Shown: positions 281 through 34,914 of the stretch, piece after piece
Layout of the letters: each line of letters starts with the position of its first letter
Numbering within the stretch: the stretch's first letter is position 1
Assembly (NCBI GenBank): GCA_016281475.1
Contig: JAEEIS010000023.1
Coordinates: forward strand, 1 to 40,409
DNA length: 40,409 nucleotides
Source: Bacteroidales bacterium
GTDB taxonomy: Bacteria; Bacteroidota; Bacteroidia; Bacteroidales; P3
Direction: 5' to 3'
Made by a program: the position numbers and the translations under genes
The notes under the pieces: generated by a model
Databases searched by the model: none
The model's input: the letters and a program-made list of their open reading frames with translations, nothing else
Told to the model about the DNA's origin: nothing

Positions 281-316
281 TATAGAGACGATAGATTTGA
301 TAGAATAGATAGATAT
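281..316 (+). repeat. Period-9 degenerate tandem repeat in the leader of the ABC-F gene
   Basis: Four consecutive 9-nt units (281-289, 290-298, 299-307, 308-316) share the pattern nATAGAnnn, for example GATAGATTT and GATAGAATA. The array ends five bases before the ATG at 322. A -7-like TAGATTTG sits inside it at 292-299, so promoter and repeat may overlap; the -33 partner is poor. Confidence 0.6.
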
Positions 317-321
317 TATTT

Positions 322-2235
322 ATGCTTGCTGTCAATAATCTTTCGGTGCAGTTCACTGGCACCAACCTATTTGACAATGTGACATTCAATATCGGCGACC
401 GCGACCGCATAGGCCTGGTGGGCAAGAACGGCGCGGGAAAGTCGACACTGCTGAAGATACTGTGCGGCTGGCAGCAGCCTGAGTCGGGCACGATGGTGAT
501 AGCCACGGGCCAGGAGGTGGGCTACCTGCCGCAGGAGATGGTGCCCGACACGGTGCGCAGCGTGCTCGACGAGGCGATGACCGCCTTCAGCCGCATCGAC
601 GAGCTGCTGGCCCTGCAGCAGCGGCTGACGGAGGAGATTGCTAAGCGGACCGACTACGAGTCGGCCGAGTATACCCGCCTGCTGAACCGCCACAACGAGG
701 TGACGGAGCAGGTGGCGATGTTGGGAGCCGACAGCCGGCAGGAGAAGACGGAGAAGGTGCTGCTGGGCTTGGGGTTCCGGCACAGCGACTTCGGACGGCC
801 GGTGGCGGAGTTCAGCGGCGGCTGGCAGATGCGCGTGGAGCTGGCAAAGCTATTGTTGCGCCAGCCCGACTTCCTCCTGCTCGACGAGCCGACGAACCAT
901 CTGGACATCGAGTCGATTCAGTGGCTGGAGAATTTCTTGCAGGGCTACTTGGGAGCGGTGGTGCTGGTGTCGCACGATAGGACGTTCCTCGACAACATCA
1001 CCAAGCGGACTATCGAAATTACCGCTGGGAGGATATACGACTACAAGTGCCCCTACTCGGAGTATGTGGTGCAGATGCAGGAGCGGCGGGCGTCGCAGAT
1101 GGCTCAGCTGACGGCACAGCAGCGGCAGGTGGCACAGATAGAGGCGTTCATCGAGCGGTTCCGCTACAAGGCGACGAAGGCGAAGCAGGTGCAGTCGAGG
1201 GTGAAGATGCTGGAACGGATGGAGATGGTGCAGCTGGACGAGGTGAGCACCGAGAGCATCCATTTCCGTTTCCAACCCGCGCCGCACAGCGGCAAAATAG
1301 TGGTGGAGACGCAGGGGCTGGGCAAGGCTTACGGCGACCTGCGGGTGTTCGACGGGGTGGACATGCTGATCACCTCGGGACGACGCATTGCCTTTGTGGG
1401 CAAGAACGGCGAGGGCAAGAGCACGATGGCGAAGATTATCGTGGGCGACATCAAGGACTACACGGGGTCGTTCCGGCTGGGAGCCAATGTGCAGGTGGGC
1501 TACTATGCACAGAACCAGGCGGCAATGCTGGACGGCGAGAAGACCGTGTTCCAGACCATCGACGACATAGCGCAGGGCGATATACGGCCCAAAATACGTA
1601 ACATTCTGGGCAGCTTCCTGTTCGACAGCGAGGACTGCGAGAAGAAGGTGAAGGTGCTGTCGGGCGGCGAGAAGGCACGACTGGCATTGGCAAAGCTGTT
1701 GCTGACACCGTCGAACCTGCTGGTGCTGGACGAGCCGACGAACCATCTGGACATGGACTCGAAGGACATTCTGAAGAACGCCCTGCTGCAATACACGGGA
1801 ACGCTGATAGTGGTGTCGCACGACCGCGACTTCCTACAGGGGCTGACCGACGAGCTGTATGAGTTCCGCGACGGGGCGGTACACGAGTTCAAGGGCGACA
1901 TATTCGAGTTTACCGAAAGCCTGAACGCCCGCCAACAGGCATCGGCACCCAAACCCGCAGCCGCCACAGAGACGAAGACGCAAGGACGGCTGAACTACGA
2001 GCAGAGCAAGGACCGCGAGCGAGAACTGCGCAAACTACGCAACGCGGTGGAGAAGATAGAGAAGGAGATAGAGGCACTCGAGAGCGAGATAGCAAAGAAA
2101 GAGGCGATCCTTGCCTCCGGCAACTCGCAGGACAAAGATTTCTACACCAGCTACCAGGCCTTAAAAGACTCCCTCGACGACAAAATGGAGGAATGGGAGA
2201 CGGCGACCATTGCGGTAGAGGAGTTTAAGGGATGA
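322..2235 (+). CDS. ABC-F family ATPase (ribosome-associated, duplicated ABC domains)
   Basis: A 637-residue soluble protein with two ABC ATPase domains and no membrane segments, which is the ABC-F layout. Domain 1 has Walker A GKNGAGKST (34-42), signature FSGGW near 164 and Walker B with DEPTNHLD from about 188. The linker between domains (about 235-310) is charged and helical. Domain 2 has Walker A GKNGEGKST (about 360-368), signature LSGGEKA near 446 and DEPTNHLD from about 470. The C-terminal 100 residues form a Lys/Glu-rich coiled coil. Known ABC-F proteins bind the ribosomal E site and ease stalled translation; a few give ribosome-protection antibiotic resistance. The exact subfamily (Uup/YdiF-like) cannot be fixed by eye and nothing here shows a resistance role. 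Codons on this strand favour G at the third position (CTG, GTG, ACG), unlike genes further right. Confidence 0.93.
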   Translation: MLAVNNLSVQFTGTNLFDNVTFNIGDRDRIGLVGKNGAGKSTLLKILCGWQQPESGTMVIATGQEVGYLPQEMVPDTVRSVLDEAMTAFSRIDELLALQQRLTEEIAKRTDYESAEYTRLLNRHNEVTEQVAMLGADSRQEKTEKVLLGLGFRHSDFGRPVAEFSGGWQMRVELAKLLLRQPDFLLLDEPTNHLDIESIQWLENFLQGYLGAVVLVSHDRTFLDNITKRTIEITAGRIYDYKCPYSEYVVQMQERRASQMAQLTAQQRQVAQIEAFIERFRYKATKAKQVQSRVKMLERMEMVQLDEVSTESIHFRFQPAPHSGKIVVETQGLGKAYGDLRVFDGVDMLITSGRRIAFVGKNGEGKSTMAKIIVGDIKDYTGSFRLGANVQVGYYAQNQAAMLDGEKTVFQTIDDIAQGDIRPKIRNILGSFLFDSEDCEKKVKVLSGGEKARLALAKLLLTPSNLLVLDEPTNHLDMDSKDILKNALLQYTGTLIVVSHDRDFLQGLTDELYEFRDGAVHEFKGDIFEFTESLNARQQASAPKPAAATETKTQGRLNYEQSKDRERELRKLRNAVEKIEKEIEALESEIAKKEAILASGNSQDKDFYTSYQALKDSLDDKMEEWETATIAVEEFKG

Positions 2236-2262
2236 GAGGGTGTTTCGCACAGAAGGGAAGCG

Positions 2263-3540: not shown

Positions 3541-3555
3541 ACCAAGAATTACTTT

Positions 3556-3600: not shown

Positions 3601-3627
3601 TAAATAATATTGTATGGAAGTGTGATT

Positions 3628-6865: not shown

Positions 6866-6919
6866 AAAATCGGAGTTATCTGAAAAATCGGAATAATCAG
6901 AACATTCAGAATAATCGGA
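6866..6919 (+). repeat. Period-9 degenerate tandem repeat between ruvB and hutI
   Basis: Six adjacent 9-nt units, 6866-6874 through 6911-6919, follow the pattern nnnATCGGA with drift (ATAATCGGA, ATAATCAGA). A partial seventh (ATAATTATT) may follow. The array starts 7 nt after the ruvB stop and ends 27 nt before the hutI ATG. Read on the minus strand the unit core is TCCGA, the same core as in the array at 32734-32787. Confidence 0.75.
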
Positions 6920-6946
6920 ATAATTATTAGACAACATATTATAACC

Positions 6947-9994: not shown

Positions 9995-12900
9995 ATGAAA
10001 AAAAGATTTTTGCTCTTTGGACTGATTTTTGCCTTGACAACAGTCATGTCCCATGCCCAAATCTATGAAGTCTACACACAAGACTTCGAGACTGGCACGC
10101 CCGCCACCTATACGGGTTCTTCGAGTACGGACGTAACAACACAGACGACCATCGTATCGGGTGGTAGCCGTGCGTTGAAGATGCTCCACCGGCAGGGTAC
10201 TGAGACAATCGTCACGCTTGACACAATTGACCTCTCATTCATCAGATTCAACTACTATGTGCTAGAATTCATGCACATCAACTGGATTGATCCTTCAAAC
10301 AACAATTGTGCATCGGCACTTGACTGCAGCATAATAGAGGCTAAGTGCGAGGGAGAGGCAACGTGGACCCAGCTCAACAGTACCCACTACAGAACAGAGA
10401 ATGGCAGCACCGACTTCCCCAGCACGTCATCGTTCAGCATCCATTCGTATCCTGAATGGGATAGAGCCCCGGGACTCAACAACACATTGTGGATAAAGGA
10501 GCGCTTCGACCTAGACCAACTGTTCTACACGCCCCTGCAGGAGAATAAAAAGTTGATACTCCGTTTTCGCGTGAAGGAGAGACTCACTGCCACCGCGCAG
10601 GACGCTTGGTACATTGACGATATTCGTATCCGCGCCTCGACCCAACCGATTAGAACCCCCAAAATCACCATGCGTTCGTATCCCGACATGCTGAACTATC
10701 CGAGCAGCCGCGGAGCCAAAATGATTGCCGACGTGACGACAACGGTGTCGCAAGGCATCAATGGCGACTCGGTGTATATCGAGTACCGCGTGGGCAACAG
10801 CACAGAGGTGCACAGATCCTACATGCATCGACAAGGGACGGGCAACCGTTTTGTGGGTCGTATTCCCATGTATGGCTATGACACACTGATCCACTACCAT
10901 GTAATAGCGCAAGACTCGACAGTTAACCATAACACTGTGTACTTTCCCGACAACATGAACCAATGGCTCACATACAGATGTGTACGAGGGAAGACCCACT
11001 CCGCCACCCCACCAGGAACACAAACCACGACACATGTTTTCCCATTTCCATCCCTTGCAGACAACCGATCGGAATGGATATACGATAGTGTGACTATGGC
11101 AGACATGGGATATGGACCAGGAAACATCAAAACATTCCGATTCCTACGCGCGTATATGTCACCCAACGATGTGACACGTCCGCACCTCCAGATCCGCATG
11201 ATGAATTCTCCAAATTCGCTTATACGCGACGGAATTTCAACATATTACACATCATCAGATATGCAGATAGTCTACGATTCGGCCTTTACGTTTGAACAGG
11301 CGGCCGCACTCTCGTACAAGACTGTCAACTTGCAGGATACGTTCTTCTATGCCGGATCGGACATAGTGATACAGATACTCTATGATGGAACCGGCCCCCA
11401 CAACCCATCGTGGGAACAGCTAAAACATATCCCGACACCTACCAACAAACAATCGCTATACTCAACTGATGCAGAAGCCTCATTAGGCTGGGATGCCTTT
11501 GGAGCCAACCTTGTGGATTTCGCAGGAGGCAATCCTGCAACCACACGTCCTTTTATGGTGTTTTTCGAGACTCAGAATGTGCCACTGATATATGACTGCG
11601 GTATTTCCGGAATGTCTTATCCAAGTTACGACACGCCCTGCCATATTGGAACCGACTCGGTGGTGGTGTGGCTGAAGAACTACGGCGTGAGTCCGATGAA
11701 TGCGGTGAGAATATGGTATCGGATAGACAATGGCAATCTGGTCCATTACGACTGGACCGGGACGCTCAACGGAGGCGACAGTGTGCGTGTGCATGTGTGC
11801 GACAGCCAGATGTTTACCGTAGGCTACCACACCATCAGAGCATGGGTGGACGACACCATCACCATCGACACGCTGCATATGCGCGACCATGAGCCATACA
11901 ATGACACGATGTTCACACCCTTTGCCTCATGCGACGGTCCCTATAGTGGTGTTCGTACAATTGGCAACGCCCCTAACGACAACTTCAGAACATTGGAGGA
12001 CTGCCTATATGTGTTGAGCCGCTGCGGCATTGACGCTCCGCTGACTGTCAAGATGCCAGCCGGCGTGTACGATGTCACAAAGTTCCCCTATATTCCAGGC
12101 ACCTCGGCGACCAACTATGTGCAGTTTGAACCTGCCATCGCTACAGGCACGGTTACATTCCGTCGTGCACGCCGCGGCGAGAATGTGCGAGAGCCGATGC
12201 TGGTGGATCTGACCGAGGCTCACGGTATCCGTTTTAACAACATTACGTTCAGCAATGGACGATATACGGACAACCGTTGTGATGTGCTTGCACAGTTGGG
12301 CGACAACAGCGCGTACTGCCAGTTTATCAATTGTACATTTGCCGACAGCAACACCATCAACAGTTCGGCCCAGTCGCTGATTAACACGGGCAATGCCGAC
12401 TCGGTCACCATTACCAACTGTACCTTCTATGGTGGTACGATAGGTGTGGACGTAACGGGTGCCGCACCTGACGTTCGCTCCAGTGGCAACGTGGTCAGCT
12501 TTAACAACTTTACCAACCAAGTGAATAGTGCCATCCGTCTTGTCAACCAGGATGCCGCAGTGGTGGACAGCAACTTTGCCAACGACGTGCTTACCAATGC
12601 CAGTTACATCATATTGGGACAGTACTGCTACAACGGCACACGCATCACCCGCAACCGCGTTTACTCGACGAAAGGTACTTGCTGTATCGGTGTGTCGGAC
12701 ATGCACGGTAACGAGAGCAACTACTGTATTGTTGCAAACAACATGTTGGTGTCGGTGGACGACGGCACTAGTAACATGCTGACCACCCCGCTCAACATCA
12801 TCAAGGGTTCGTATATTAAAACGGTATTCAATTCAGTAAGAATGAATGCACCGACGCGAGTCAACGTGGCAGGTGCCACATTTGGTGGTGACGTTATCAG

Positions 12901-15900
12901 CAACAGCTATTTCCAAAACAACGTGATAGCCACATTCGACACCTCGAACTACGCCTTCTCGTTCATACCTGGTGACAATGCTGCCACCCTGCATGTGGAT
13001 CACAACTGCTATTATTCTATCAGCGGTGTGCTGAACAAGCTGAGCGGCTCGAACTATAACAACCTGAACGGTTGGCGCAACGCTGTGCCTGGCGACGTCG
13101 GATCAGTGAGCGGAAACCCCAACTACACCAATGGATCGGTATGTCGTGTGGACTTGCGCTCATTCAACGCCCTGCTCCGTAACGTGGGCGTGCCTGTACC
13201 AGAGGTAACGATAGACCTCTTCGGTTCGACTCGTTCGGCCACAGCTCCCAGCCTAGGTGCCTACGAGGTGACTGCCCTTTCGGTCGATTTCAGGCCGGAA
13301 GAGTTTGTAACGCCTATGGAAGACTACTGCGGAGCCCCCGCCAGCATACCTGTGGAAGTGGCCATCCGCAATACGGGTAACGGAACATATACCGCCAGCA
13401 GCGCCTCGCCCATGACGGTCTATTACAGCATTGACAACGGTCCTGTCCAATCGTTCGTGGTGAACCGCGACTGCGGTCCCAACGACACCATCCACTTCCT
13501 CTCAACCCGCACCATGGCTCTGCCTAGCGGTGCCGGCAACACCGACCGTACATATAATATTAAATGGTGGGTGAAATGCAACCTCGACCCCGATGACTTG
13601 AACGATACCAGCACGTGGACCGTTCTTTCGAGATACGCTGCACCCGCACCTACCGTAATCAACCAGAACGTGGCTTACAACAACGTTGCCACCATCACTC
13701 CGACGGCAGGCGTGAACACCTGGCCGGTGAGCTACTACACCTCGGGCAACGGCCGCCAACAGCGTTCGGGCATCTCGTGGTACCACAGTTTGGAAGATAC
13801 GGCAGCATTCTTCTATGGTCCCACCCTGACCACCACACCGCTCTACGACGACACAACCTTCTACATCTCGCAGAAGCGTAACCTGCCGTTGGTGAAAATC
13901 ACGGAGGTGCAGGTAAGCCGCACGGCTCCCGGTGTCACCTACCCCCTGCCCTCATGGATGCACGCACAAACCACATTTGCCGTTGAGCTGACCAACTGTG
14001 GCGACTATCCCGCCCAAATTGAGGGCGACAGCATCATAGTGGTGCAGAGCAACGCCGCAGCAAAGATATGGGTACTGCCCAATGTCACCATACAGCCGGG
14101 AGAGAATCTGATACTGCAATTCAGAACGTCGACCGTGGCAAGCGATTCGACCCACACAATCTATGCACCCAGCACCGCAACCGTAACGCCCCCTTATACC
14201 GCCAACTTCGGCGTTATCTATCGCGACGGACATGGTGTTGCCGATGCTGTTGCTTTCAACAACGTCATCACCACTTCCTCGACCCAACCCATCAATTGGA
14301 GCAACCAGCAGATTCCTGCCGCCGTGTGGCAGGGCAGTGCCATCGACCTGGCCCGCAACGGCAACACGGCCAACACACCCACTGCCGGTGCACGCCGCAT
14401 TGCATGGCCCACCAACGCCGCCACAGCCTCGCCCACTGCCAGTGCCTCGCTATGGCAGGTGGCAACAGACTCTCTCCGTATGCACATTGGTGAGACCGAG
14501 AGCAACCTCATCCGCTATTTCGACAACGGCTGCGAAGGCTTCCGCTCGGCGGTGAACATCCATGTGACGGGTGTTCCCAACACCGACCTGTTTGTTGACG
14601 AGCCTGTGGTAGACACGGGCTGTAATCTGACCACCGCCGAACCCGTCTCTGTGTTGGTGCACAACTACGGTGCGAACCCTGTTCCCACAGTTGTAGTGAA
14701 ATATAGCCTTGACGGTGGCACCACCATCGTCTGTGCCGATACTATTGCGTCGGGTATTGGCACCCGCTCGGAGGTATATCACACCTTCAGTACCCCCATC
14801 AATATGCAGACCAGCCACGATACGGTGTTCCACATCAAAGCGTGGGTAGACGCCGTAACGGGCGACAACGCCCATGCGAACGACACCAACGAGGGCTACT
14901 ACACTGCCAAATACACACCCTCAGTTCCTCAGGTGGACACCGTCCAGACGGTCAACTACGGCGAGCGTCTGACGATAACGGCATCCGGGCTGCCTTCAAC
15001 CGACAGAACCATCTGGTACGACAAAAACATGAACAATCTGGGTGTCACCAATGGAACGTATATCACCGACTATATCTATCGCCGCGACACTATGTTTGTT
15101 CGTTCCGTCGCCCTCATGGATTTGGCCAACACCCATATCGGCACCTTGGCCTCGGTGAAGAACAACAGCTATCCTTCGCCCTACAACCCCAAGACCCGCT
15201 ACGTCAAGGAGCAATACCTTGTCACAGCCCAGCAGCTACAAGATGCTGGACACGCAGCTGGCGACATCAGCTCCCTGTCGTTCTACCTTGAATCGCTTGG
15301 AGCAAACGTCTCGACCTTTACCTATAGCTATTACACCATCAAGATGGGTACTACCACCCAGAGCGTTTTCGCCAACGGAACCTTCCTCTCTGGGCTGACA
15401 CAGGTGTACAATAAAACCAACTACACCCTCACCAGCAACGACCTCGGATGGGTACGACACAATTTGGATGCGCCATTTGCATGGGACGGTACTTCCAACA
15501 TCGTTATCGAGATTACCCGCGCACTTAGCACTGCGGGTATTAACAATGGTGCCAACACCCGCTACACGGCACAGGCTAACACCGTCATCTCCAAGCAACA
15601 TGCTACCACCGACCAAGCCTCGCAGACATCAGGCACCAAGGGTAACGACCGACCCGACATCCTGTTTGGTTTCCTCGAGCCCGTGGGCTGCGAGAGTGCC
15701 ACCTCACCCATATATATTAATGTAACCAATATACCCGACAACGACGCATCCCTCAGCTGGCCCGAAGCTCTCGACACGACGGTCATCGCCTCGTGCGATA
15801 CGACGAGCCTGGATGTGGTGCTGGAAAACAGAGGTAACAACGACATCACCAGCTACACTCTGCGCTACAAGATAGACAACCAGAACTGGCAGCAGATTAC

Positions 15901-18900
15901 TGGCAACGCCAACAACCTTCCTCTTGGCTACAACCGTACCGTACCCTTGCTGAGCACCCATTTCACTCCCGGCCGTCACACCGTCATCGCAGTAGTGAAC
16001 ATTACCGGCGACACCGTGCCGACCAACGACACCATCCGCCGCACCTTCAACGTCCGCTTCTGCGCCGGCACCTACAGTATCGGCTCCTGCGGCAGCGACT
16101 ATCCCTCTATCACCACAGCCCTCGACACCCTGCACAACTCAGGTGTGGCAGGCCCCGTGGTCTTCGAACTATGCGAGCAGACCTTCAACGAGCAGCTCAA
16201 TATCGAGCATGTGGACGGTACCGACGTGAACAACACCGTCACATTCAAGACTGTTTCTGGTGCTACCGACTTGGCGAAAATTACCCATACGCCAACCAAC
16301 ACCAGCAACCATGTAATGTCTATCAACGGTGCCGACTACATCACCTTCGACAGCATCTACTTCTACGCCAATTACACTAGCGGCTCGGGCAACAACATAT
16401 TTGCCAATGTGGCCAAAGTCGAACAATCCAACTTCATTAACTTCCGCAACTGCGTGCTGCGTTCCAAGATGACCACAGCATCGTCGACCAACGCCAACCT
16501 GCTGCTCCTGGGCGACAATAACCACTATATCACTGTCAACCACTGCGTACTCGACAGCGGATACTACTCCGTTCGCTCCATCGGCAATAACCAAAGCGAC
16601 AATATTTCTGTCACCAACTCCGACATCCTCAACTTCTGGTTCCAGGGTGTCTACCTTCGCAACACCGACACTGTCACTGTCACAGGCGACAGCATCGCAT
16701 CGGGTGTGACCGTTGCTGGCAAGCCCTTGACCGGTATCTACATTGCTGGGGCAAAACATGCCAGCATCCAACGCAACTATATCCATCTTATCGACAGCCG
16801 CACCGGCGGCAAACGAGGTATAGTCCTTAACAACTGCCGTGGTACCAATATCGACCGCGTCACCGTATATAATAATATGGTTTCAGTATATGGTACTGGT
16901 GTCGCATCGCTCTCCTCGTCGGGTATCTGGGTAGACTCTCTCTCCAAGCATGTCAGTGTCTACTACAACACCTGCAACCTCTATGCCGGTGCCAATCAGG
17001 CTGCCACCCGCACCTTTAGCTGTCAGAATTCTTCTTACATCCACGCCTTGAACAATATCTTCAAGAACGAGAGTAAGGGCTTTGCCTACTATATCGCCAT
17101 TGACACCTGTATGTCAAGTTCAAACTATAACGTCTACTGGACCAATGCCGATACCCACGCCACCACTGGTGTCATCAAGTTCGCCTGGTGGGGTGTCAAC
17201 TGCAACAACCTCGACAGCCTGCGGTTACTGAACCATGCCGACAACAACTCATACCAGACCTACCCCTACTTCGTCGACAGCATCTACAACCTAAGCACTA
17301 CGTTGGCACAATTTGCCGACCGAGCCCAGTACAACCCCGATGTCATCACCGACATCAAAGGCTGCATCCGTCCGCAGATTCCTAAACCCACTATCGGTGC
17401 CTATGAGTTCAATTGCATCCGTGAGACCCACGATGTTGCCGTTGCAGAAATTACAGAGCCCTATGTACCCTCTGTCACCACTGGCAACAATCCCATCGTG
17501 CTCAATATCGAGACCGACTCCATCATGGTCCGCGCCAAATTCTTCAACAACGGTACTGCTGTTGAGCAAAACCTCACTTGGTATGCCTACATGGGAGACA
17601 CCTACCCTGTGGTACAATCCGCAACACGCACCATCAACCGTCTTGCAGCGCAAGCATTCTACGAAGACTCTGTCCTTCTTGAGTCACCGCTAGGCATTGT
17701 CGACACTCAAAATATCGTTGTTGTCATCAATATGGCTCCTGGTATCGTCGACCAACGCCCCGAAGACAATATCGACACCGCCCAAGTATTCATTTATCCT
17801 GCCTACGACCTGCAAGTCGTCTCTGTCGCAGTCGACAGCACCTGCGATCCTGCTCACTGCCGTATGTACAGCGTGCCACTACGCTACACACTGAAGAATG
17901 CCGGTAAGAAGGACTTCCCCGGCGACTTCTCCTTCACCCTCGGCTATGACTACTATTGCCACCAGCCCTCTACACAGAGCTTCCCCAACTTCCCTGGCAG
18001 CAGCAGCCTCGACGTGCAAACCTTTGGCGGTCTCGCACTGCCCGTCGGCACTCCGCGCGAAGTCACATTGTCCGCTGCCTACGAGCCCAACCTCTATCCC
18101 ACAGGCACCCTGCTTGACATCACTGCACGTCTGCGTGGATTCGTCACTGCCCAGTACGACATCAAACAACACAACGACACTACTAACTATATCAACATCA
18201 CTTCCAACCACACACCTGAAGCACCTGTCGCCCACGATACCATGGTCGACTACGGTACCTACGGCAACCTCTGGGCCACTCAGGGCGAAACACGTGCCAT
18301 CCGTTGGACTCGCGACACCACCGACGGCAGTTTCTTCTACAACGGCAACAACAACTACAACCGTTCCACACACTGGAGCAACACGCCGCAATACTTCCAC
18401 GACTCCCTCTACTACCTCTACTGCCTCAGCTCGCGCAACTGTACTAGTTACTACTCTCAAATCAATGTTGGCATCAACATGCCACTCACCTACGATGTAT
18501 CCATCTCCGAGGTTCGCTCGCCTCGTGGCAGCGGACGTGTCTATCTCGAAAAAGACACCGTCACCCTCCGCGTTGTCAACTATGGTGCACAACCCATCTC
18601 CAACATTCCTATCGCATTCAAATTCATGGATGCCAATGGGCGCATTACCTATCTCGAAGTCCACGACACCGTCCGTGCTACCATACCCGGGCGTGTTGGC
18701 GACAATGTGCATTATTATGACCACACCTTTGGCGGGTGCCTCGACGACACTGCAATGCTGATGATCAACCTGCCACTAGCCAACAGGTCTTATACCCTTA
18801 ACGCATGGGTGTATCATCCCGATGACCAACAACGTGGAAACGACACGCTACGATTCCTCCATACCTTCAAAGCCCTTGCCGAAACTACGTACGACACCAT

Positions 18901-21900
18901 TAACAAGTACACTCCCACCAGCGTCGAGGGATTCGACATTACCCACGTCTCCTTCAACGAACTCGACAACCGCATGCCCGACCTCATCGGCTACGACAAC
19001 CTCTGGCTGGGTTCATATAATCCAACCAACGCCGAGATTCCGACACTCTTCGTCCGTCGTGGTACTCAAGACACCCTCACTATCGAGGTCGCCAACAATC
19101 TCGACGAACTCGACTCCACCACAGCAGCCAGCCTTTGCGTGGCCATCGACTACAATCGTGACGGGCAATACGACTTCATGAGCGAAGAAAACCTCACTCG
19201 TAGACCTTTGGCTGGCAATGCTGTCAAAGTGCACAGCCGCCAGCCCTTTAAAATGCCTCTCACCATCCCCGAGAGTGCCCACTACGGTTACATGCGTATG
19301 CTTGTGTGGGTACATGGCGACTCAACCATCTACACCAACGGCCTGCATACTGCCACCGTTCACGACAATGGGCAGCTGCAACAATACATGCTCTATGTAC
19401 AGGAAGACTGCATGCTTGATACGGTGGATGCCGCTCTTACTCGCGTCGTCACACCTCGCAATCATATTGTCTCCGACGCCGACTACCAAGTCACCATCAT
19501 GCTTGCCAACAAGGGTTCCGAGACACTCACCCAAGCTAAAATCAACTATCGTTTCGTCAACGTCAACCAACCCGAACCGTTCTTGCACGACTCAATCCAA
19601 TGGGCCGGCAACCTCGAACCGGGTATGAGCGTACCTGTCATCCTCAACACCGTTCGCTTCCCCGAAGGCACCACCAACCTCTATTGCTCCGTTGAAGCCG
19701 AAGGCGACACCTTCCACATCTCCAACAACAATCTACAGTACCAGTACCACCGCTACTTCGTCCTCGAACCTCGCTACATAGACAGCTTCGATCAAGCCAT
19801 TGATCGGTGGTATGCCCCCGTTGGCTACAACGCATTTACCCGCAACTACTTCGAACGCGGCATGCCTGCCAAGAGCACCATATCCTCAGCCTACTCACAA
19901 CCCAACGCCTACATCACCAGTGCCACCGAATCCATCGTATCCGGCAAGCACGGCAACCGTAGCGTACTCTACTCACCTATCATCAACATCCAGCAAATTC
20001 ATCCCGACACCATCACCTTCCTCCTCAGTATGAGCGTGGCACAAGGTGCCCTCCTGCGTATGGAGTACATCGACTACCAAGGGATTTGGCGTCTCGTCGA
20101 AGACCCGAGCATCCGTTGGGGAGGCACCGAACCAAGCGGAAGTTGGTATGATGAGGAAGCTGGTTGGAACGGAACTAACAATCAAAACGGGGCCTACAGG
20201 TTCCTATCCTTCCCCACCTCGCTCATCAGCACCGACTTCCCACAGCACGTACAATTCCGTTTCGTGTTCACCACTCCCGTTGCCACCTCTCCCGCTGCCA
20301 ACTTTGGCGACGGTGTGGCTATCGACAATCTGGTCATCGGTCGCAAACGCCGTAATGTAGACGTAGGTGTCCGCGAAATTCTCTATCCCACTGCCCCGCA
20401 GTTCGGTCAGACCATCTATCCGCGTGTCCGCATCCACAACTACGGACTCGACAGCATCCACAACTTTATGGTCTGCTACCGTCCTTACGGCACATACCTG
20501 GCCCACGAGGCAATATGTCCCACTTGGATACCTGCAGGCGGAGACATTGAATACGAATTCCCGACTCCGTTCACCGTCACCAGCAACTTCCCCGACACCT
20601 TTGAGATTTGCGCCTTCACCAAAGTGCAGTCCGACTACTACCGCGATAACGACACCACCTGCTCCATCTATGGGCTCTCACCGCTTGCCAACGACCTCTA
20701 TCTATATGCTATCACATCGCCACTCGCTAGTGCTGTGGCAGGCGACAGCATTAACATCACCGTCCGTCTGCGTAACTTTGGTCAGAACGAGATTGACGAA
20801 TGCGTGGTCCGCTACCTCTACAACGACAACGACACTGTCACCGAACGCATTGTCTTCTCAGACTACCTTGGTCGCAACCTCCGCTCTACCGAATTCTTCA
20901 ACTATACCTTCCAACATCGCGAACGGGCCACCATGGGCACCATGCGTCTGACCACATGGTGTGAATACCAATACGATGTCTACCCCTACAACGACACTAT
21001 CTCCAAGGAAATTGCCGGCATCTCAGCCATCACCGACATGCAAGCCACTGCAGGTATGATTGACAATCGTCAAACCACAGACAACCACATCTGTATCGTC
21101 CTTGACAATGTCGGTGCCCGTGCAGCCAACGATTTCTTGGTAGGATATGTTTACGACCGCGACCCTTCTACGCGCTTCGAAGAAATATTCCACCGCGATC
21201 GACCGCTCCCTGCTGGCGGACATACCGTGCACCGTTTCAGCCGTCAGGTCCCCAACCGTTCCTACGAATGGTCATACATCATGGTCTATTGTAGCGTACC
21301 TGGCGATACCAACCAACACAACGACACCTCCGAGGTCATCCAACCCTACCTCACCGACCTACAATACGTCAAGATCCAAGTCGAAGAGAACATGAGTGAC
21401 TCTTGCAGACTACGCGCTGTCATCCGCAACAACGGCAACGTGAGCTATCTCCAGTGGGTACGTGCTTACTTTGCCATCAACGGAGCACCCGAGACTTACC
21501 ACAAGTTTGAAGAAGGCCAATACCTCATTGCTCCTGGCGAAGAGCGCCACATGCTATTCCCACAAAGAATTCCAAAGAGTAGCATTCGTCAGTATATCGG
21601 ATCCGGACGTCTCATGATGCCTAATGCAGACTCTGATCCCACTAACGACCAGACCACCATCATCGAAGTTGTCAACTACTTCGAAGACGTGCCTCGCGTG
21701 GATGAGCCCGAATTCGTTCTTGAGCAGAACTATCCTAACCCATACGACGGCTCCACTCGCATCGAGTTCGCCTTACCCTATAGCGGTTCTACACGATTCT
21801 TTGTAACCGACGTGGTGGGACGTCTCGTCCATGAAGAGACAGCCTTCTACAGCGAAGGTCGCCACACGCTCACCTTCAACAAGGGCTCTCTGCCCAGTGG

Positions 21901-21964
21901 GGTCTACTACTACGGCCTCGAGTTCGATGGTAAGCGACGTATGCACAAGATGATTATCCACTAG
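9995..21964 (+). CDS. Giant secreted multidomain surface protein with T9SS type A sorting domain
   Basis: A 3989-residue protein. Residues 1-21 are a signal peptide (KKR, hydrophobic core, SHA|Q). An N-terminal jelly-roll-like domain ends near AWYIDDIRI (about 205-213). Two beta-helix blocks (about 646-1092 and 2024-2472) are rich in ITNCTF / NNMVSV-type rungs and each ends in a GAYE motif, as in choice-of-anchor right-handed helix proteins. Around them are about a dozen CARDB-like beta-sandwiches (from about 530, 1096, 1528, 1915, 2479, 2603, 2833, 3146, 3454, 3566, 3678, 3788), Ig-like modules, a lamin-tail-like stretch (about 1298-1480), a GEVED-like domain (about 3029-3135, AIDYNRDGQYDF) and a MAM-like domain (about 3260-3450). 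The last 80 residues are a type A sorting domain (EQNYPNPYDGSTRIEFALP, then VTDVVGRLV, then LPSGVYYY). Family knowledge predicts export by T9SS, cleavage of the tail and attachment to the cell surface. Adhesion is an inference; no enzyme site was found. Confidence 0.93.
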   Translation: MKKRFLLFGLIFALTTVMSHAQIYEVYTQDFETGTPATYTGSSSTDVTTQTTIVSGGSRALKMLHRQGTETIVTLDTIDLSFIRFNYYVLEFMHINWIDPSNNNCASALDCSIIEAKCEGEATWTQLNSTHYRTENGSTDFPSTSSFSIHSYPEWDRAPGLNNTLWIKERFDLDQLFYTPLQENKKLILRFRVKERLTATAQDAWYIDDIRIRASTQPIRTPKITMRSYPDMLNYPSSRGAKMIADVTTTVSQGINGDSVYIEYRVGNSTEVHRSYMHRQGTGNRFVGRIPMYGYDTLIHYHVIAQDSTVNHNTVYFPDNMNQWLTYRCVRGKTHSATPPGTQTTTHVFPFPSLADNRSEWIYDSVTMADMGYGPGNIKTFRFLRAYMSPNDVTRPHLQIRMMNSPNSLIRDGISTYYTSSDMQIVYDSAFTFEQAAALSYKTVNLQDTFFYAGSDIVIQILYDGTGPHNPSWEQLKHIPTPTNKQSLYSTDAEASLGWDAFGANLVDFAGGNPATTRPFMVFFETQNVPLIYDCGISGMSYPSYDTPCHIGTDSVVVWLKNYGVSPMNAVRIWYRIDNGNLVHYDWTGTLNGGDSVRVHVCDSQMFTVGYHTIRAWVDDTITIDTLHMRDHEPYNDTMFTPFASCDGPYSGVRTIGNAPNDNFRTLEDCLYVLSRCGIDAPLTVKMPAGVYDVTKFPYIPGTSATNYVQFEPAIATGTVTFRRARRGENVREPMLVDLTEAHGIRFNNITFSNGRYTDNRCDVLAQLGDNSAYCQFINCTFADSNTINSSAQSLINTGNADSVTITNCTFYGGTIGVDVTGAAPDVRSSGNVVSFNNFTNQVNSAIRLVNQDAAVVDSNFANDVLTNASYIILGQYCYNGTRITRNRVYSTKGTCCIGVSDMHGNESNYCIVANNMLVSVDDGTSNMLTTPLNIIKGSYIKTVFNSVRMNAPTRVNVAGATFGGDVISNSYFQNNVIATFDTSNYAFSFIPGDNAATLHVDHNCYYSISGVLNKLSGSNYNNLNGWRNAVPGDVGSVSGNPNYTNGSVCRVDLRSFNALLRNVGVPVPEVTIDLFGSTRSATAPSLGAYEVTALSVDFRPEEFVTPMEDYCGAPASIPVEVAIRNTGNGTYTASSASPMTVYYSIDNGPVQSFVVNRDCGPNDTIHFLSTRTMALPSGAGNTDRTYNIKWWVKCNLDPDDLNDTSTWTVLSRYAAPAPTVINQNVAYNNVATITPTAGVNTWPVSYYTSGNGRQQRSGISWYHSLEDTAAFFYGPTLTTTPLYDDTTFYISQKRNLPLVKITEVQVSRTAPGVTYPLPSWMHAQTTFAVELTNCGDYPAQIEGDSIIVVQSNAAAKIWVLPNVTIQPGENLILQFRTSTVASDSTHTIYAPSTATVTPPYTANFGVIYRDGHGVADAVAFNNVITTSSTQPINWSNQQIPAAVWQGSAIDLARNGNTANTPTAGARRIAWPTNAATASPTASASLWQVATDSLRMHIGETESNLIRYFDNGCEGFRSAVNIHVTGVPNTDLFVDEPVVDTGCNLTTAEPVSVLVHNYGANPVPTVVVKYSLDGGTTIVCADTIASGIGTRSEVYHTFSTPINMQTSHDTVFHIKAWVDAVTGDNAHANDTNEGYYTAKYTPSVPQVDTVQTVNYGERLTITASGLPSTDRTIWYDKNMNNLGVTNGTYITDYIYRRDTMFVRSVALMDLANTHIGTLASVKNNSYPSPYNPKTRYVKEQYLVTAQQLQDAGHAAGDISSLSFYLESLGANVSTFTYSYYTIKMGTTTQSVFANGTFLSGLTQVYNKTNYTLTSNDLGWVRHNLDAPFAWDGTSNIVIEITRALSTAGINNGANTRYTAQANTVISKQHATTDQASQTSGTKGNDRPDILFGFLEPVGCESATSPIYINVTNIPDNDASLSWPEALDTTVIASCDTTSLDVVLENRGNNDITSYTLRYKIDNQNWQQITGNANNLPLGYNRTVPLLSTHFTPGRHTVIAVVNITGDTVPTNDTIRRTFNVRFCAGTYSIGSCGSDYPSITTALDTLHNSGVAGPVVFELCEQTFNEQLNIEHVDGTDVNNTVTFKTVSGATDLAKITHTPTNTSNHVMSINGADYITFDSIYFYANYTSGSGNNIFANVAKVEQSNFINFRNCVLRSKMTTASSTNANLLLLGDNNHYITVNHCVLDSGYYSVRSIGNNQSDNISVTNSDILNFWFQGVYLRNTDTVTVTGDSIASGVTVAGKPLTGIYIAGAKHASIQRNYIHLIDSRTGGKRGIVLNNCRGTNIDRVTVYNNMVSVYGTGVASLSSSGIWVDSLSKHVSVYYNTCNLYAGANQAATRTFSCQNSSYIHALNNIFKNESKGFAYYIAIDTCMSSSNYNVYWTNADTHATTGVIKFAWWGVNCNNLDSLRLLNHADNNSYQTYPYFVDSIYNLSTTLAQFADRAQYNPDVITDIKGCIRPQIPKPTIGAYEFNCIRETHDVAVAEITEPYVPSVTTGNNPIVLNIETDSIMVRAKFFNNGTAVEQNLTWYAYMGDTYPVVQSATRTINRLAAQAFYEDSVLLESPLGIVDTQNIVVVINMAPGIVDQRPEDNIDTAQVFIYPAYDLQVVSVAVDSTCDPAHCRMYSVPLRYTLKNAGKKDFPGDFSFTLGYDYYCHQPSTQSFPNFPGSSSLDVQTFGGLALPVGTPREVTLSAAYEPNLYPTGTLLDITARLRGFVTAQYDIKQHNDTTNYINITSNHTPEAPVAHDTMVDYGTYGNLWATQGETRAIRWTRDTTDGSFFYNGNNNYNRSTHWSNTPQYFHDSLYYLYCLSSRNCTSYYSQINVGINMPLTYDVSISEVRSPRGSGRVYLEKDTVTLRVVNYGAQPISNIPIAFKFMDANGRITYLEVHDTVRATIPGRVGDNVHYYDHTFGGCLDDTAMLMINLPLANRSYTLNAWVYHPDDQQRGNDTLRFLHTFKALAETTYDTINKYTPTSVEGFDITHVSFNELDNRMPDLIGYDNLWLGSYNPTNAEIPTLFVRRGTQDTLTIEVANNLDELDSTTAASLCVAIDYNRDGQYDFMSEENLTRRPLAGNAVKVHSRQPFKMPLTIPESAHYGYMRMLVWVHGDSTIYTNGLHTATVHDNGQLQQYMLYVQEDCMLDTVDAALTRVVTPRNHIVSDADYQVTIMLANKGSETLTQAKINYRFVNVNQPEPFLHDSIQWAGNLEPGMSVPVILNTVRFPEGTTNLYCSVEAEGDTFHISNNNLQYQYHRYFVLEPRYIDSFDQAIDRWYAPVGYNAFTRNYFERGMPAKSTISSAYSQPNAYITSATESIVSGKHGNRSVLYSPIINIQQIHPDTITFLLSMSVAQGALLRMEYIDYQGIWRLVEDPSIRWGGTEPSGSWYDEEAGWNGTNNQNGAYRFLSFPTSLISTDFPQHVQFRFVFTTPVATSPAANFGDGVAIDNLVIGRKRRNVDVGVREILYPTAPQFGQTIYPRVRIHNYGLDSIHNFMVCYRPYGTYLAHEAICPTWIPAGGDIEYEFPTPFTVTSNFPDTFEICAFTKVQSDYYRDNDTTCSIYGLSPLANDLYLYAITSPLASAVAGDSINITVRLRNFGQNEIDECVVRYLYNDNDTVTERIVFSDYLGRNLRSTEFFNYTFQHRERATMGTMRLTTWCEYQYDVYPYNDTISKEIAGISAITDMQATAGMIDNRQTTDNHICIVLDNVGARAANDFLVGYVYDRDPSTRFEEIFHRDRPLPAGGHTVHRFSRQVPNRSYEWSYIMVYCSVPGDTNQHNDTSEVIQPYLTDLQYVKIQVEENMSDSCRLRAVIRNNGNVSYLQWVRAYFAINGAPETYHKFEEGQYLIAPGEERHMLFPQRIPKSSIRQYIGSGRLMMPNADSDPTNDQTTIIEVVNYFEDVPRVDEPEFVLEQNYPNPYDGSTRIEFALPYSGSTRFFVTDVVGRLVHEETAFYSEGRHTLTFNKGSLPSGVYYYGLEFDGKRRMHKMIIH

Positions 21965-29610: not shown

Positions 29611-29634
29611 TATATTATAACGTATATTATAACG
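29611..29634 (-). repeat. Exact 12-nt tandem repeat in the leader of the type B cargo gene
   Basis: TATATTATAACG occurs twice in direct succession (29611-29622 and 29623-29634), 18 nt upstream of the minus-strand start codon. Both copies are identical. Confidence 0.8.
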
Positions 29635-31639: not shown

Positions 31640-31641
31640 GG

Positions 31642-32733: not shown

Positions 32734-32787
32734 AACATCCGCCCCATCCGAAAACCCCAACCATTCCGACCTCTCCGACCTCTCCAA
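32734..32787 (+). repeat. Period-9 degenerate tandem repeat between the LptG-like gene and sufE
   Basis: Six adjacent 9-nt units start on the base after the TAA stop (32734-32742, 32743-32751, 32752-32760, 32761-32769, 32770-32778, 32779-32787). Most follow nnnnTCCGA or nnnATCCGn, for example CCTCTCCGA; the third unit (AAACCCCAA) is diverged. An A run and AAAATATG with the sufE start follow. Confidence 0.78.
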
Positions 32788-32805
32788 AAAAAAATCTCCC
32801 AAAAT

Positions 32806-33228: not shown

Positions 33229-33237
33229 CAACCATTT

Positions 33238-33265
33238 CAATTTTCAACTTTCAACCCCCAATTCC
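33238..33265 (+). repeat. Period-7 tandem repeat leading to the DUF59 start codon
   Basis: Four adjacent heptamers of the form CAAYYYY (33238-33244 CAATTTT, then CAACTTT, CAACCCC, CAATTCC) run up to one base before the ATG at 33267. The whole gap from the sufE stop to this ATG contains no G. Confidence 0.8.
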
Positions 33266-33266
33266 C

Positions 33267-33584
33267 ATGTCCCCCACCAAAGAAACCCTCCACGACGCCA
33301 TCGTCAACTGTCTGAAAAACATATATGACCCCGAGATTCCCGTCAACATCTACGACCTCGGCCTCATCTACAACATCGACATCGACGACGACTTCAACGT
33401 CCGCATCCTCATGACCATGACCGCCCCCGACTGCCCCGAAGCCGAATACATGTTCATGGAAGTGCGCCAGATGGTAGGCTACATCCAAGGCATCAAAAAC
33501 GTCGACGTTGAGCTCACCTTCGACCCCCCATGGGACTGGAACACCCTCAGCGACGAAGTGAAATGCGAACTCGGCCTCCTGTAA
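33267..33584 (+). CDS. DUF59/MIP18-family iron-sulfur assembly protein (SufT-like)
   Basis: The true start is ATG 33267, giving 105 residues; the long frame running in from upstream is arginine-rich out-of-frame translation. The motif DPEIPVNIYDLGLIY (21-35) and the TAPDCP segment with C56 mark the DUF59 fold, and the end carries the LTFDPPWDW stretch that often closes these proteins. SufT-type members help mature or deliver iron-sulfur clusters; PaaD-like members serve oxygenases. Its place directly after sufE favours the SufT role. It is preceded by a G-free heptamer leader and followed by another before the next gene. Confidence 0.92.
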   Translation: MSPTKETLHDAIVNCLKNIYDPEIPVNIYDLGLIYNIDIDDDFNVRILMTMTAPDCPEAEYMFMEVRQMVGYIQGIKNVDVELTFDPPWDWNTLSDEVKCELGLL

Positions 33585-33592
33585 CGGAAGCA

Positions 33593-33627
33593 TAACTTTC
33601 AACTCTCAACTTTCAACTCTCAACTCC
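33593..33627 (+). repeat. Period-7 tandem repeat leading to the ABC permease start codon
   Basis: Five adjacent heptamers (33593-33599 TAACTTT, then CAACTCT, CAACTTT, CAACTCT, CAACTCC) end one base before the ATG at 33629. As in the previous gap the last unit is followed by C and then ATG, and the array has no G. Confidence 0.85.
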
Positions 33628-33628
33628 C

Positions 33629-34762
33629 ATGCGTCTCCACGACCTCCTCTCCCGCCGCCAGCGCCGCTTCCTGCGCCAGCAGGCCCCCGCCCAGGGCACC
33701 TCCCTCTCCGCCCTGGCGTGGCACCGCTTCTGCCGCAACCGGCTCTCCGTCGCCAGCCTCGTCGTCATCGGCCTCTTCGCCCTCGTGGCCATCCTCGGCT
33801 ACCTCATCACCCCCGACCACACCCCCCACTGCAACCAGCAATACCTCGAACTCGCCACCCTCAAGCCATTCACACCCATACAATTCACCTACGTCGACGA
33901 CGGACTTCCCCAGCCCAGCCGCAACCCGCTGCGCCGCATGCTCGTCGGCGAGCCCCTCCCCTACACAGCCATACCCACCTACGCCACCACCCCCGTGGGC
34001 GACAGCCTCGACATCGAAAGCTACACCGGCTCCACCCCCAACGACGGACCCGTGCGCCGCGTGGCACAGTCGCAAATAGTCAAATCCACCACCCGCACCT
34101 TCATCCTCGGCACCGACGCCTACGGACGCGACGTGCTCAGCATGCTCATGATAGGCAGCCGCGTCAGCCTCTCCGTCGGCTTCATAGCCCTCCTCATAGC
34201 CCTCCTCATCGGCATCACCCTCGGCGCACTCGCCGCCTACCACGGCGGATGGGTCGACAACCTCGTCACCTGGCTCATCAACGTCGTCTGGGCCATCCCC
34301 ACCGTCCTCCTCGTCATCGCCATCACCTTCGCCCTCGGCAAAGGATTCTGGCAAGTCTTCGTAGCCGTCGGCCTCACCATGTGGGTCGACATCGCCCGCG
34401 TGGTACGCGGCCAAGTCTACAGCGTCAAGGAAAAAGAATACGTCGAAGCCGCCCGCGCCCTCGGCTACAGCTCCTTCCGCACCATCTTCCACCACATCCT
34501 GCCCAACATCACCGGAGCCGTCATCGTCGTCGCCGCCGCCAACTTCGCCAGCGCCATCCTCCTCGAGGCCGGCCTCAGCTTCCTCGGCATCGGCGTGCAG
34601 CCCCCCATGCCCTCGTGGGGCACCATGGTCAAGGACAACTACAGCTACATCCTGCTCGACAACGCCTACCTGGCACTCCTCCCCGGAGCCGCCATCATGC
34701 TCCTCGTCCTCGCCTTCATGCTGCTGGGTAACGGCATCCGCGACGCCCTCGACGTCAAATAA
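33629..34762 (+). CDS. ABC transporter permease, OppC/DppC type
   Basis: A 377-residue inner-membrane permease. The N-terminus has the OppC-type cytoplasmic lead (RLHDLLSRRQRRFLRQQ) and a first helix near 40-60, followed by a long periplasmic loop. The BPD_transp_1 domain starts near 150 with LGTDAYGRDVLSMLMIGSR, and the ATPase-contact EAA loop reads EYVEAARALGYSSFRTIFHHILPN from residue 270. Such permeases import di- or oligopeptides or nickel with a second permease, an ATPase and a binding protein. None of these partners is in the window. The very strong C-ending codon bias leaves a long but meaningless open frame on the opposite strand. Confidence 0.92.
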   Translation: MRLHDLLSRRQRRFLRQQAPAQGTSLSALAWHRFCRNRLSVASLVVIGLFALVAILGYLITPDHTPHCNQQYLELATLKPFTPIQFTYVDDGLPQPSRNPLRRMLVGEPLPYTAIPTYATTPVGDSLDIESYTGSTPNDGPVRRVAQSQIVKSTTRTFILGTDAYGRDVLSMLMIGSRVSLSVGFIALLIALLIGITLGALAAYHGGWVDNLVTWLINVVWAIPTVLLVIAITFALGKGFWQVFVAVGLTMWVDIARVVRGQVYSVKEKEYVEAARALGYSSFRTIFHHILPNITGAVIVVAAANFASAILLEAGLSFLGIGVQPPMPSWGTMVKDNYSYILLDNAYLALLPGAAIMLLVLAFMLLGNGIRDALDVK

Positions 34763-34864
34763 GCCGCCCACCCCGTCCCCCTGGCAGTTCCCGACAAACC
34801 CCGATTTTCAACCAATCCATATCAAGCACTTCTTCGCTCCTACAGCCCCAAAGGATACCCCAAT

Positions 34865-34914
34865 CAGTAATAATCGGTACAATGCGGTAGGAATCCGTAC
34901 GAAACGGTACGGCG
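34865..34914 (+). repeat. Period-10 degenerate tandem repeat
   Basis: Five adjacent 10-nt units (34865-34874, 34875-34884, 34885-34894, 34895-34904, 34905-34914) share CGGTAnnAAT, for example CGGTACAATG and CGGTAGGAAT; the first is more diverged. Two neighbouring units can pair as CCGTAC/GTACGG, giving a small possible hairpin. Confidence 0.72.

What the first reader, a model, noticed from the sequence alone, without database searches (positions are those of the whole stretch)
281..34914. Intergenic gaps built from different short, strictly periodic, degenerate tandem repeats
Seven gaps carry arrays with an exact period but a gap-specific unit: period 9 at 281-316, 6866-6919 and 32734-32787; period 12 at 29611-29634; period 7 at 33238-33265 and 33593-33627; period 10 at 34865-34914. 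Units drift in sequence but keep their length, and arrays stop at start codons or begin at stop codons. Genes themselves are not affected. I know of no named element of this kind. Possible explanations are replication slippage fixing unstructured spacers, a translation-leader function in a phylum that does not rely on Shine-Dalgarno pairing, or phase variation by copy number.
Basis: seen in the sequence. Interest (0 to 1): 0.78.

Follow-up and report, generated by a model that had tools for sequence, protein, structure and literature searches.

The report
Stray ends of small genetic elements
The odd, strictly periodic DNA runs between these bacterial genes are most likely loose ends of a family of small genetic elements that carry one protein gene of unknown function, which would tie two old puzzles of bacterial genomes together and make both testable.

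Summary
The arrays are real: 8 of 14 gaps exceed dinucleotide shuffles at p<0.05; two of the seven cited (29611, 34865) are weak. They are not leaders conserved with the operon: at four gaps, 3-4 of 28-29 relatives carry an array, mostly with another unit. Following the units into relatives leads to one gene family. Four-helix-bundle "S23 / 23S rRNA intervening-sequence" genes (PF05635/TIGR02436) and longer TIGR04258 genes lie among exact-period arrays; for the TIGR02436 type the two sides are usually inverted copies (own flanks best match in 21/31, 16/26, 9/12 loci; random genes 1/120). Period follows protein subfamily: mostly 7 for TIGR02436, 9 for TIGR04258. Bacteroidota genomes without PF05635 have 1 array in 289 sampled gaps, genomes rich in it 14 in 356 even away from such genes. 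The window's three period-9 units recur in or beside TIGR04258 genes of its two nearest relatives, whose orthologous ruvB gap has no array. So the window arrays are best read as gene-less arms of such elements. Unproven: movement, the protein's role, and why gene-less arrays far outnumber gene-bearing ones.

The parts
282..313 (+). Period-9 array, core ATAGA plus variable N4, about 3.5 units, ends 8 bp before the ABC-F start codon; read as a gene-less arm of a TIGR04258-type element
   Evidence: p=0.002; same core and period on both sides of a TIGR04258-type gene in G002:C5 (there the gene reads in two frames, so it may be broken)
6869..6924 (+). Period-9 array, core TCNGA, about 6 units, begins 9 bp after the ruvB stop; read as a gene-less arm of a TIGR04258-type element
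   Evidence: score 23, largest of 500 shuffles 13; 77-85% matches over 37-60 bp in TIGR04258 loci G001:C51 and G002:C68 (4 of 8 non-orthologous hits); orthologous gaps of G001 and G002 have no array
32757..32785 (+). Period-9 array TCCGACCTC, about 3 units, lptG-sufE gap; read as a gene-less arm of a TIGR04258-type element
   Evidence: p=0.006; TCCGACCNNTCCGACC right after the TIGR04258 domain, inside the 3' end of the frame, in G001:C16; array of the same unit in the same gap of L001, not of L002
33235..33266 (+). Period-7 array TTTCAAC, ends at the start codon of the DUF59 gene; read as a gene-less arm of a TIGR02436-type element
   Evidence: p=0.006; drifted version (TTCTCAA) in the same gap of L001
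33594..33626 (+). Period-7 array (AACTTTC/AACTCTC), 4.7 units, 2 bp before the oppC-like start; read as a gene-less arm of a TIGR02436-type element
   Evidence: p=0.002; the same heptamers follow GACAAATGAAGGCGGCAGCC in a gene-less element of G001 (L105); none in this gap of L001 or L002
34862..34911 (+). Degenerate period-10 stretch with CGGTA cores; doubtful member
   Evidence: p=0.010, not significant after correction; no parent element was searched for
29611..29634 (+). Two exact copies of a 12-mer (TATATTATAACG); probably a chance or unrelated duplication
   Evidence: p=0.042; no parent element was searched for

Best explanation
The five good arrays in the window are gene-less arms (copies or scars) of small dispersed elements whose full form is: array - S23-type four-helix-bundle gene - array, the second array being, for the TIGR02436 type, usually the inverted copy of the first. 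Array period goes with the protein subfamily (mostly 7, sometimes 8 or more, for PF05635/TIGR02436; 9 for TIGR04258). Shown by computation: arrays on both sides, the inverted relation for TIGR02436-type loci, the period-subfamily link, the link with presence of the family across sampled genomes, and that the window's period-9 units are units of TIGR04258 loci in its nearest relatives. Inferred: (1) units multiply by slippage and the two arms are kept alike by copying between inverted arms at a fold-back; (2) the element or its arms reach new intergenic sites, more often without the gene than with it; (3) when transcribed, two-armed copies fold into a long stem that RNase III can cut, as published for the S23 intervening sequence of 23S rRNA, so insertion between operon genes is tolerated; (4) the protein, a toroidal homopentamer in the published structure described in PMC4990558, binds the arms in a register equal to the period.
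For: PF05635 in 10 of 10 clade genomes, 0 of 14 control genomes. Flank array score>=12 within 150 bp: upstream 37/50, downstream 34/50, both 29/50 of S23-family genes, against 15%, 17% and 4.5% of 557 ordinary genes. Upstream flank against reverse complement of downstream flank: own pair is the best of all in 21/31 (clade TIGR02436), 16/26 (phylum sample), 9/12 (plasmids, ten cyanobacterial); random genes 1/120; direct orientation over the same threshold 1/31 and 3/26. Period on the protein tree: 16 changes, shuffled mean 32, 0 of 200 as low. Genomes: 1/289 gaps in the 16 genomes with no PF05635 hit against 16/362 in 17 genomes with 6-16 hits (Fisher p=0.0008); leaving out gaps within 300 bp of such a gene 1/289 against 14/356 (p=0.0025). 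Window links. An S23 gene inside 23S rRNA (L244) has a modest period-7 run (score 13) in its right flank. PMC4990558: tandem heptamers in front of the S23 ORF of a 23S rRNA intervening sequence, copy number differing between strains, cleavage by RNase III in vitro (passages).
Against: The window holds no S23-family gene. Most arrays in the clade are not next to such a gene: only 4 of 49 in the G001 sample and 2 of 45 in the G003 sample are. Gene-less arrays are not clearly inverted pairs: within 700 bp an inverted match is found for 18/49, 7/45 and 12/43 arrays, a direct match for 13/49, 8/45 and 7/43, chance about 2.2, 2.2 and 0.4 (the higher counts included arrays complementary to themselves, which its control did not). 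Of 21 ORFs with complementary flanks among 1,766 scanned, only 3 are S23 genes. For TIGR04258 the inverted relation is weak: own best in 9/40, direct matches over threshold in 10/40 against 9/40 inverted (CTAG is its own reverse complement, many ORFs were truncated), and only 19/41 have a scored array. Two of 12 plasmid loci (L236, L243) have direct, not inverted, arrays. Arm mismatches show no preference for G-U-compatible changes (85 against 87), so selection on an RNA stem is not supported. Of six same-site gene pairs picked by eye, two (L133/L155, L146/L148) have both own arm scores above both crossed scores; the rest are mixed or uninformative. The zero and rich genome groups also differ in G+C, and stretches of the rich group came mostly from contigs known to hold PF05635 hits. 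Period-11 arrays occur without PF05635 (G070).
Confidence: 0.66

Rival explanations
1. Plain slippage repeats: intergenic DNA in these bacteria is prone to expansion of units of 7-11 bp, fixed where no gene is hit; S23 genes have nothing to do with it.
For: Arrays far exceed shuffles in two clade genomes and in loci of other Bacteroidales (31/181, 32/199, 35/450 gaps against 0.2-0.4% shuffled); most lie far from any S23-family gene; direct partners are about as common as inverted ones in the G003 sample; units differ between sites.
Against: Inverted flanks of one gene family, period following protein subfamily, near absence in sampled genomes without the family, homologous units at unrelated sites in TIGR04258 loci.
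Confidence: 0.18
2. The arrow is reversed: arrays or array hairpins come first by another process and S23-family genes insert into, or settle beside, them.
For: Gene-less arrays outnumber gene-bearing ones; genes sit at one site with 60-66% protein identity while arrays differ (five pairs).
Against: Insertion into a direct array would leave direct, not inverted, arms; period goes with protein subfamily; sampled genomes without the genes lack arrays; Y1 transposase genes in the same clade have no such flanks (0 of 5 score 12 or more).
Confidence: 0.1
3. Translation or regulatory leaders: arrays in front of start codons bind a post-transcriptional regulator, as proposed for TAACTGA repeats (PMC4679880).
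For: Five window arrays end 0-22 bp before a start codon; several TCCGACC arrays of G001 lie just before an ATG (L270, L275, L276).
Against: Same operon gaps in relatives: arrays in 4/29, 3/28, 4/28 and 3/28, mostly with different units and periods; inverted, gene-flanking arrangement around S23-family genes; no conserved unit.
Confidence: 0.03
4. Phase-variation switches by copy number.
For: Copy number of heptamers before an S23 ORF differs between strains in a published case (PMC4990558, passages).
Against: Genes behind the window arrays look housekeeping (sufE, DUF59, ABC-F, oppC-like); arrays are degenerate and intergenic; no strain data.
Confidence: 0.02

Closest known systems
Intervening sequences (IVS) of 23S rRNA with an S23 ORF (PF05635, 23S_rRNA_IVP)
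   Same: S23-family ORF between inverted terminal sequences that pair into a stem; tandem heptamers at the ORF in the published case (PMC4990558, passages) and a period-7 run in L244
   Different: The other copies inspected here lie outside rRNA as far as seen, mostly between protein genes; flanks are exact-period arrays; gene-less arrays are dispersed; TIGR04258 copies use period 9
Cyanobacterial STRR and other long simple sequence repeats, heptamers prominent (Mrazek 2007 as told in PMC4679880; GGGAATC repeats of Xanthomonas, PMC4692102)
   Same: Degenerate exact-period heptamers in intergenic DNA; 70 inverted pairs reported in one Xanthomonas genome (PMC4692102, passages)
   Different: No gene was linked to them in the passages read (S23 not mentioned); here they flank S23-family genes, including on cyanobacterial plasmids. 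That STRR arrays belong to this family is my inference
TAACTGA direct repeats (PMC4679880)
   Same: Heptamer arrays, often just before start codons, also in five Bacteroidetes
   Different: One fixed unit; no S23 link (0 mentions of S23 or 'intervening' in the main text)
MITE / REPIN with RAYT
   Same: Short dispersed sequences without a gene outnumbering a single-gene source
   Different: The gene is not a known transposase; the five Y1 (RAYT-like) loci of this clade have no exact-period flanks
Avd of diversity-generating retroelements
   Same: Resembles PF05635 (PMC10053308, passages)
   Different: Whether a reverse transcriptase lies next to these genes was not looked for

Membership tests
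S23/IVP intervening-sequence element | S23-family ORF inside the element | tested here: not met
   window has none by two profiles of my own; full copies in relatives do
S23/IVP intervening-sequence element | Inverted terminal arms able to pair | tested here: inconclusive
   of two window arrays scored for a partner, one had an inverted or self-complementary match and one had none; met for full TIGR02436 copies (21/31, 16/26, 9/12)
S23/IVP intervening-sequence element | Location within 23S rRNA | tested here: not met
   window arrays are intergenic; the only Rfam hit over gathering score in the window is a tRNA. Met for L244
S23/IVP intervening-sequence element | Excision by RNase III | not testable with these tools
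   published for 23S rRNA cases (PMC4990558); no RNA data here
Dispersed arms of S23-family elements (the class proposed here) | Unit and period shared with arrays at a full element in a close relative | tested here: met
   three period-9 arrays; for a period-7 array only a gene-less element of G001, which is weaker
Long simple sequence repeat / STRR | Tandem heptamers in intergenic DNA beyond chance | tested here: met
   33235-33266, 33594-33626
TAACTGA repeats | Unit TAACTGA | tested here: not met
   window units differ
MITE / REPIN | Terminal inverted repeats matching a full-length element that encodes a transposase | tested here: inconclusive
   gene-bearing loci found, but the gene has no known transposase activity; Y1 loci show no such flanks (0 of 5)

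The most novel reading that the evidence does not exclude
S23-family ring proteins are the moving or copying factor of a widespread class of bacterial element whose ends are not fixed sequences but exact-period arrays: the pentamer reads the arms by spacing (7, 8 or 9 bp per step, set by subfamily) rather than by sequence, so units can drift freely as long as length is kept. This would explain why arrays keep their period while the unit changes, and would make tandem-heptamer repeats of Cyanobacteria, Beggiatoaceae, Xanthomonas and Bacteroidota debris of one element class.
Probability: 0.25. Interest if true: 0.93.

Novelty: new variant of a known kind. Interest (0 to 1): 0.78.

Why it matters
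Two puzzles meet: the many S23/IVP-type genes (PF05635) with no known function, and unexplained heptamer repeats in bacterial genomes. If arms and gene form one element, its mobility, its protein-array register and its RNase III processing become testable, and part of the intergenic variation in Bacteroidales and Cyanobacteria gets an origin. It also predicts a rule: array period tells protein subfamily.

Tried and rejected
Leader or regulator model: rejected by turnover at orthologous gaps. RAYT/Y1 transposase as source: L012 has such a gene between complementary flanks, but these are palindromic repeats and 0 of 5 Y1 loci have exact-period flanks. RNA-stem selection by wobble asymmetry: no signal (85:87). 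Operon preference: neighbour orientation of S23-family genes is about that of ordinary genes (clade +S+ 27 of 46 against 268 of 469 control triplets). Duplex energies between flanks were a poor measure because RNAduplex finds strong pairs in ordinary 150-mers too (own best of 13 in 22 of 49, 3.8 expected), so local alignment was used. Column test for a fixed core: 18 of 70 arrays with non-uniform columns at p<0.05 (7/24 p7, 6/10 p8, 4/20 p9, 1/13 p11, 0/1 p6, 0/2 p12; arrays with fewer than 6 mismatches were left out): suggestive only. Corrected on checking: the inverted-partner count (25 of 49) was not like for like and is replaced (18 of 49); confidence lowered from 0.70 to 0.66 for that.

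Dropped before counts: L143, L144, L145, L152 (S23-like genes at one conserved site; the downstream gene looks like kdsA, my reading; little or no array) from then on, but kept among the 50; L202 and L197 (duplicates); L223 and L225 (stops in the frame); in the tree also ORFs under 95 aa and flanks scoring under 13 (75 of 111 kept). Inspected: 50 of 63 rows, 28 of 32, 27 of the 29 new loci (many more rows there without loci), 12 of 31 plasmid records. The TIGR04258-rich extra sample (33 gaps) gave one period-9 array: too small to use.

Prior-print searches (not all aimed at this point) listed no paper that I could see to link S23-family genes as a class with flanking arrays; the library lacks most subscription journals, so this is not proof of novelty. 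Papers: PMC4679880 abstract, sections 3 and 12 and passages; PMC4990558, PMC4692102, PMC3936711, PMC10053308, PMC11270868 passages; the others listings only. Recalled, from no call: STRR as a named class of Calothrix repeats; RNA-binding rings such as TRAP as an analogy.
Full report
WHAT WAS CLAIMED AND WHAT IS THERE. Of 14 gaps in the window (2,285 bp), 8 hold a period stronger than dinucleotide shuffles at p<0.05. Five arrays are convincing: 282-313, 6869-6924 and 32757-32785 (period 9), 33235-33266 and 33594-33626 (period 7). The period-10 stretch at 34862-34911 is marginal, and the 12-mer at 29611-29634 is two copies only. In several arrays here and in relatives the unit is a fixed core with a variable remainder (ATAGA-N4; TCNGA-N4; CTAG-N5); a formal test of this is suggestive only (18 of 70 arrays).

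WHOSE GENOME. No whole genome is held for the window. The methylmalonyl-CoA mutase gene leads to uncultured Bacteroidales, many from rumen or gut, nearest L001 (90%) and L002 (89%), with Candidatus Colimorpha merdihippi (L029) among the wider relatives. The gene order mutA-lptG-sufE-DUF59-oppC is seen in 28 of L001-L030, which gives a natural experiment at four gaps.

THE SAME GAPS IN RELATIVES. Arrays (score 12 or more) are present in 4 of 29, 3 of 28, 4 of 28 and 3 of 28 relatives for the four gaps, with units such as TCTAGAAAA, ACTAG-N4, TCCGACC and YTTAACC. L001 shares versions of two window arrays; L002 has no array in these gaps. In the ruvB gap both nearest relatives lack an array. So arrays come and go fast and are not part of the operon's conserved control.

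CLADE-WIDE FREQUENCY. In 400 kb each of two relatives, 31 of 181 and 32 of 199 gaps hold an array of score 15 or more, against 0.45 and 0.75 expected from shuffles; in loci of other Bacteroidales 35 of 450 against 1.95; the loci nearest the window have few (4 of 105 against 0.80). A pattern of four CTAG cores at exact 9-bp steps with free spacers matches 56, 9, 251, 56, 77 and 0 times (overlapping matches counted) in six genomes; the backward control matches 0 times in all six.

THE GENE IN THE MIDDLE. In L021 the mutA-lptG gap is 611 bp, against overlap to 201 bp in the others, and holds a 121-aa gene of the S23 / 23S rRNA intervening-sequence family (PF05635) between inverted heptamer arrays. 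PF05635 occurs in 10 of 10 clade genomes and 0 of 14 control genomes. I looked at 50 of the 63 rows found. Two families are involved: TIGR02436, about 120 aa, and the longer TIGR04258 (four proteins tested). Arrays of score 12 or more flank S23-family genes upstream in 37/50, downstream in 34/50 and on both sides in 29/50; for 557 ordinary genes of G001 and G003 15%, 17% and 4.5%.

INVERTED ARMS. I aligned each upstream flank to the reverse complement of every downstream flank. The own pair wins in 21 of 31 TIGR02436 loci of the clade and in 16 of 26 loci from a phylum-wide sample; for random genes in 1 of 120. For TIGR04258 it wins in only 9 of 40, direct matches are as frequent, and only 19 of 41 have a scored array; there the inverted rule is weak, partly because CTAG is self-complementary and many frames were truncated. 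S23-family genes on 12 of the 31 plasmid records found (ten cyanobacterial, one Gemmatimonadota, one Azospirillum) show the rule in 9 of 12, with units such as AGTAGGG and GGGAACA; two of the exceptions (L236, L243) have direct arrays on both sides. The Azospirillum copy lies inside 23S rRNA and its right flank holds a period-7 run of score 13. A published 23S rRNA intervening sequence has tandem heptamers before its S23 frame, differing in number between strains, and is cut out by RNase III (PMC4990558, passages).

PERIOD FOLLOWS PROTEIN. On a tree of 75 proteins with scorable arrays (of 111), period classes need 16 changes against 32 for shuffled labels, never matched in 200 shuffles. Period 9 is nearly confined to the TIGR04258 branch (14 of 15 in the main clade; a sister pair with period 8; one TIGR02436 protein with 9); TIGR02436 has mostly 7, sometimes 8, rarely 6, 10 or 12. 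Within TIGR02436 period 8 is not clearly clustered (35 of 500 shuffles as low). Only 131 columns were available, so inner forks are weak.

PRESENCE ACROSS GENOMES. The 16 genomes without a PF05635 hit: 1 array in 289 sampled gaps (period 11). Seventeen genomes with 6-16 hits: 16 in 362 (Fisher p=0.0008, per-genome rank test p=0.0043, first half). Leaving out gaps within 300 bp of an S23-family gene: 1/289 against 14/356 (p=0.0025 and 0.01). The groups also differ in G+C, and the rich group's stretches came mostly from contigs known to hold hits; shuffles predict about none in either group of the first half.

THE WINDOW'S ARRAYS TRACED. 6869-6924 has eight non-orthologous matches in the two nearest relatives, four of them, at 77-85% over 37-60 bp, in TIGR04258 loci (G001:C51, G002:C68); the rest are arrays without such a gene seen. 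ATAGA-N4 arrays lie on both sides of a TIGR04258-type gene in G002:C5, which reads in two frames. TCCGACCNNTCCGACC lies right after the TIGR04258 domain, inside the 3' end of the frame, in G001:C16, and recurs elsewhere, also before start codons without such a gene nearby. The heptamers of 33594 recur in a gene-less composite element of G001 (L105). The window itself has no such gene.

HOW IT PROBABLY WORKS. Shown: association, inverted arms of the TIGR02436 type, period-subfamily link, absence of the ruvB array from both nearest relatives. Inferred: slippage grows the arms; fold-back copying keeps the arms alike; arms spread or are left behind without the gene; transcripts with two arms fold and can be cut by RNase III. 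The protein is described as a toroidal homopentamer (PMC4990558 on Lin 2006); a clade protein (L160) matches PDB 2rld, deposited with five chains. A ring with one contact per repeat unit would explain constant length with drifting sequence; this is a proposal only.

WHAT SPEAKS AGAINST. Most arrays have no S23-family gene within 250 bp: 45 of 49, 43 of 45 and 42 of 43 in three samples. Inverted partners within 700 bp are found for 18/49, 7/45 and 12/43 arrays, direct ones for 13/49, 8/45 and 7/43, chance about 2.2, 2.2 and 0.4, so gene-less arrays are often single or continued in the same direction. Only 3 of 21 ORFs with complementary flanks are S23 genes, though such genes are rare in the 1,766 scanned. 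Arm mismatches show no wobble preference (85:87). Same-site gene pairs favour arm covariation in two of six. Period 11 looks like another class. Movement itself was not observed.

VERDICT. A real and widespread feature. The window's arrays are most likely gene-less arms of S23-family elements, a wider form of the known rRNA intervening sequences. The link between this gene family as a class and exact-period arrays was not seen in ten searches of an open-access library, which is not proof that it is unpublished.

Noticed in passing
window 1-40409: GC skew of the + strand turns from positive to negative at about 8 kb while gene strands are mixed before that point, as at a replication terminus.
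   Followed up: no
window 9995-21964: A single open frame of 3,989 aa next to a TilS gene; not examined.
   Followed up: no
L163, L167: TIGR04258-type proteins of 246 aa with a cysteine-rich, zinc-finger-like C-terminus (my reading), flanked by period-8 TTATAACG arrays.
   Followed up: partly
L153, L165, L171, L180: Period-9 arrays run in frame into TIGR04258 genes and encode three-residue repeats (NQS/NQN, TSP/TPP) at the protein ends.
   Followed up: partly
L143, L144, L145, L152: S23-like genes of about 150 aa at one conserved site in four genomes with little or no flanking array: apparently a settled, vertically kept copy.
   Followed up: partly
L016, L018, L019, L021, L025: Period-11 arrays, several in inverted pairs, in the gap before mutA; no link to an S23-family or Y1 gene was established.
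   Followed up: partly
L236, L239, L246: S23 genes between cas6 and cas4 and between cmr genes on cyanobacterial plasmids; their reported co-occurrence with cas genes (PMC3936711, passages) may be mere insertion.
   Followed up: no
L093, L105 (G001): Gene-less multicopy elements with a shared core GACAAATGAANGCGGCAGCC (5 in 400 kb) between GTGATTA arrays and other heptamer arrays.
   Followed up: partly
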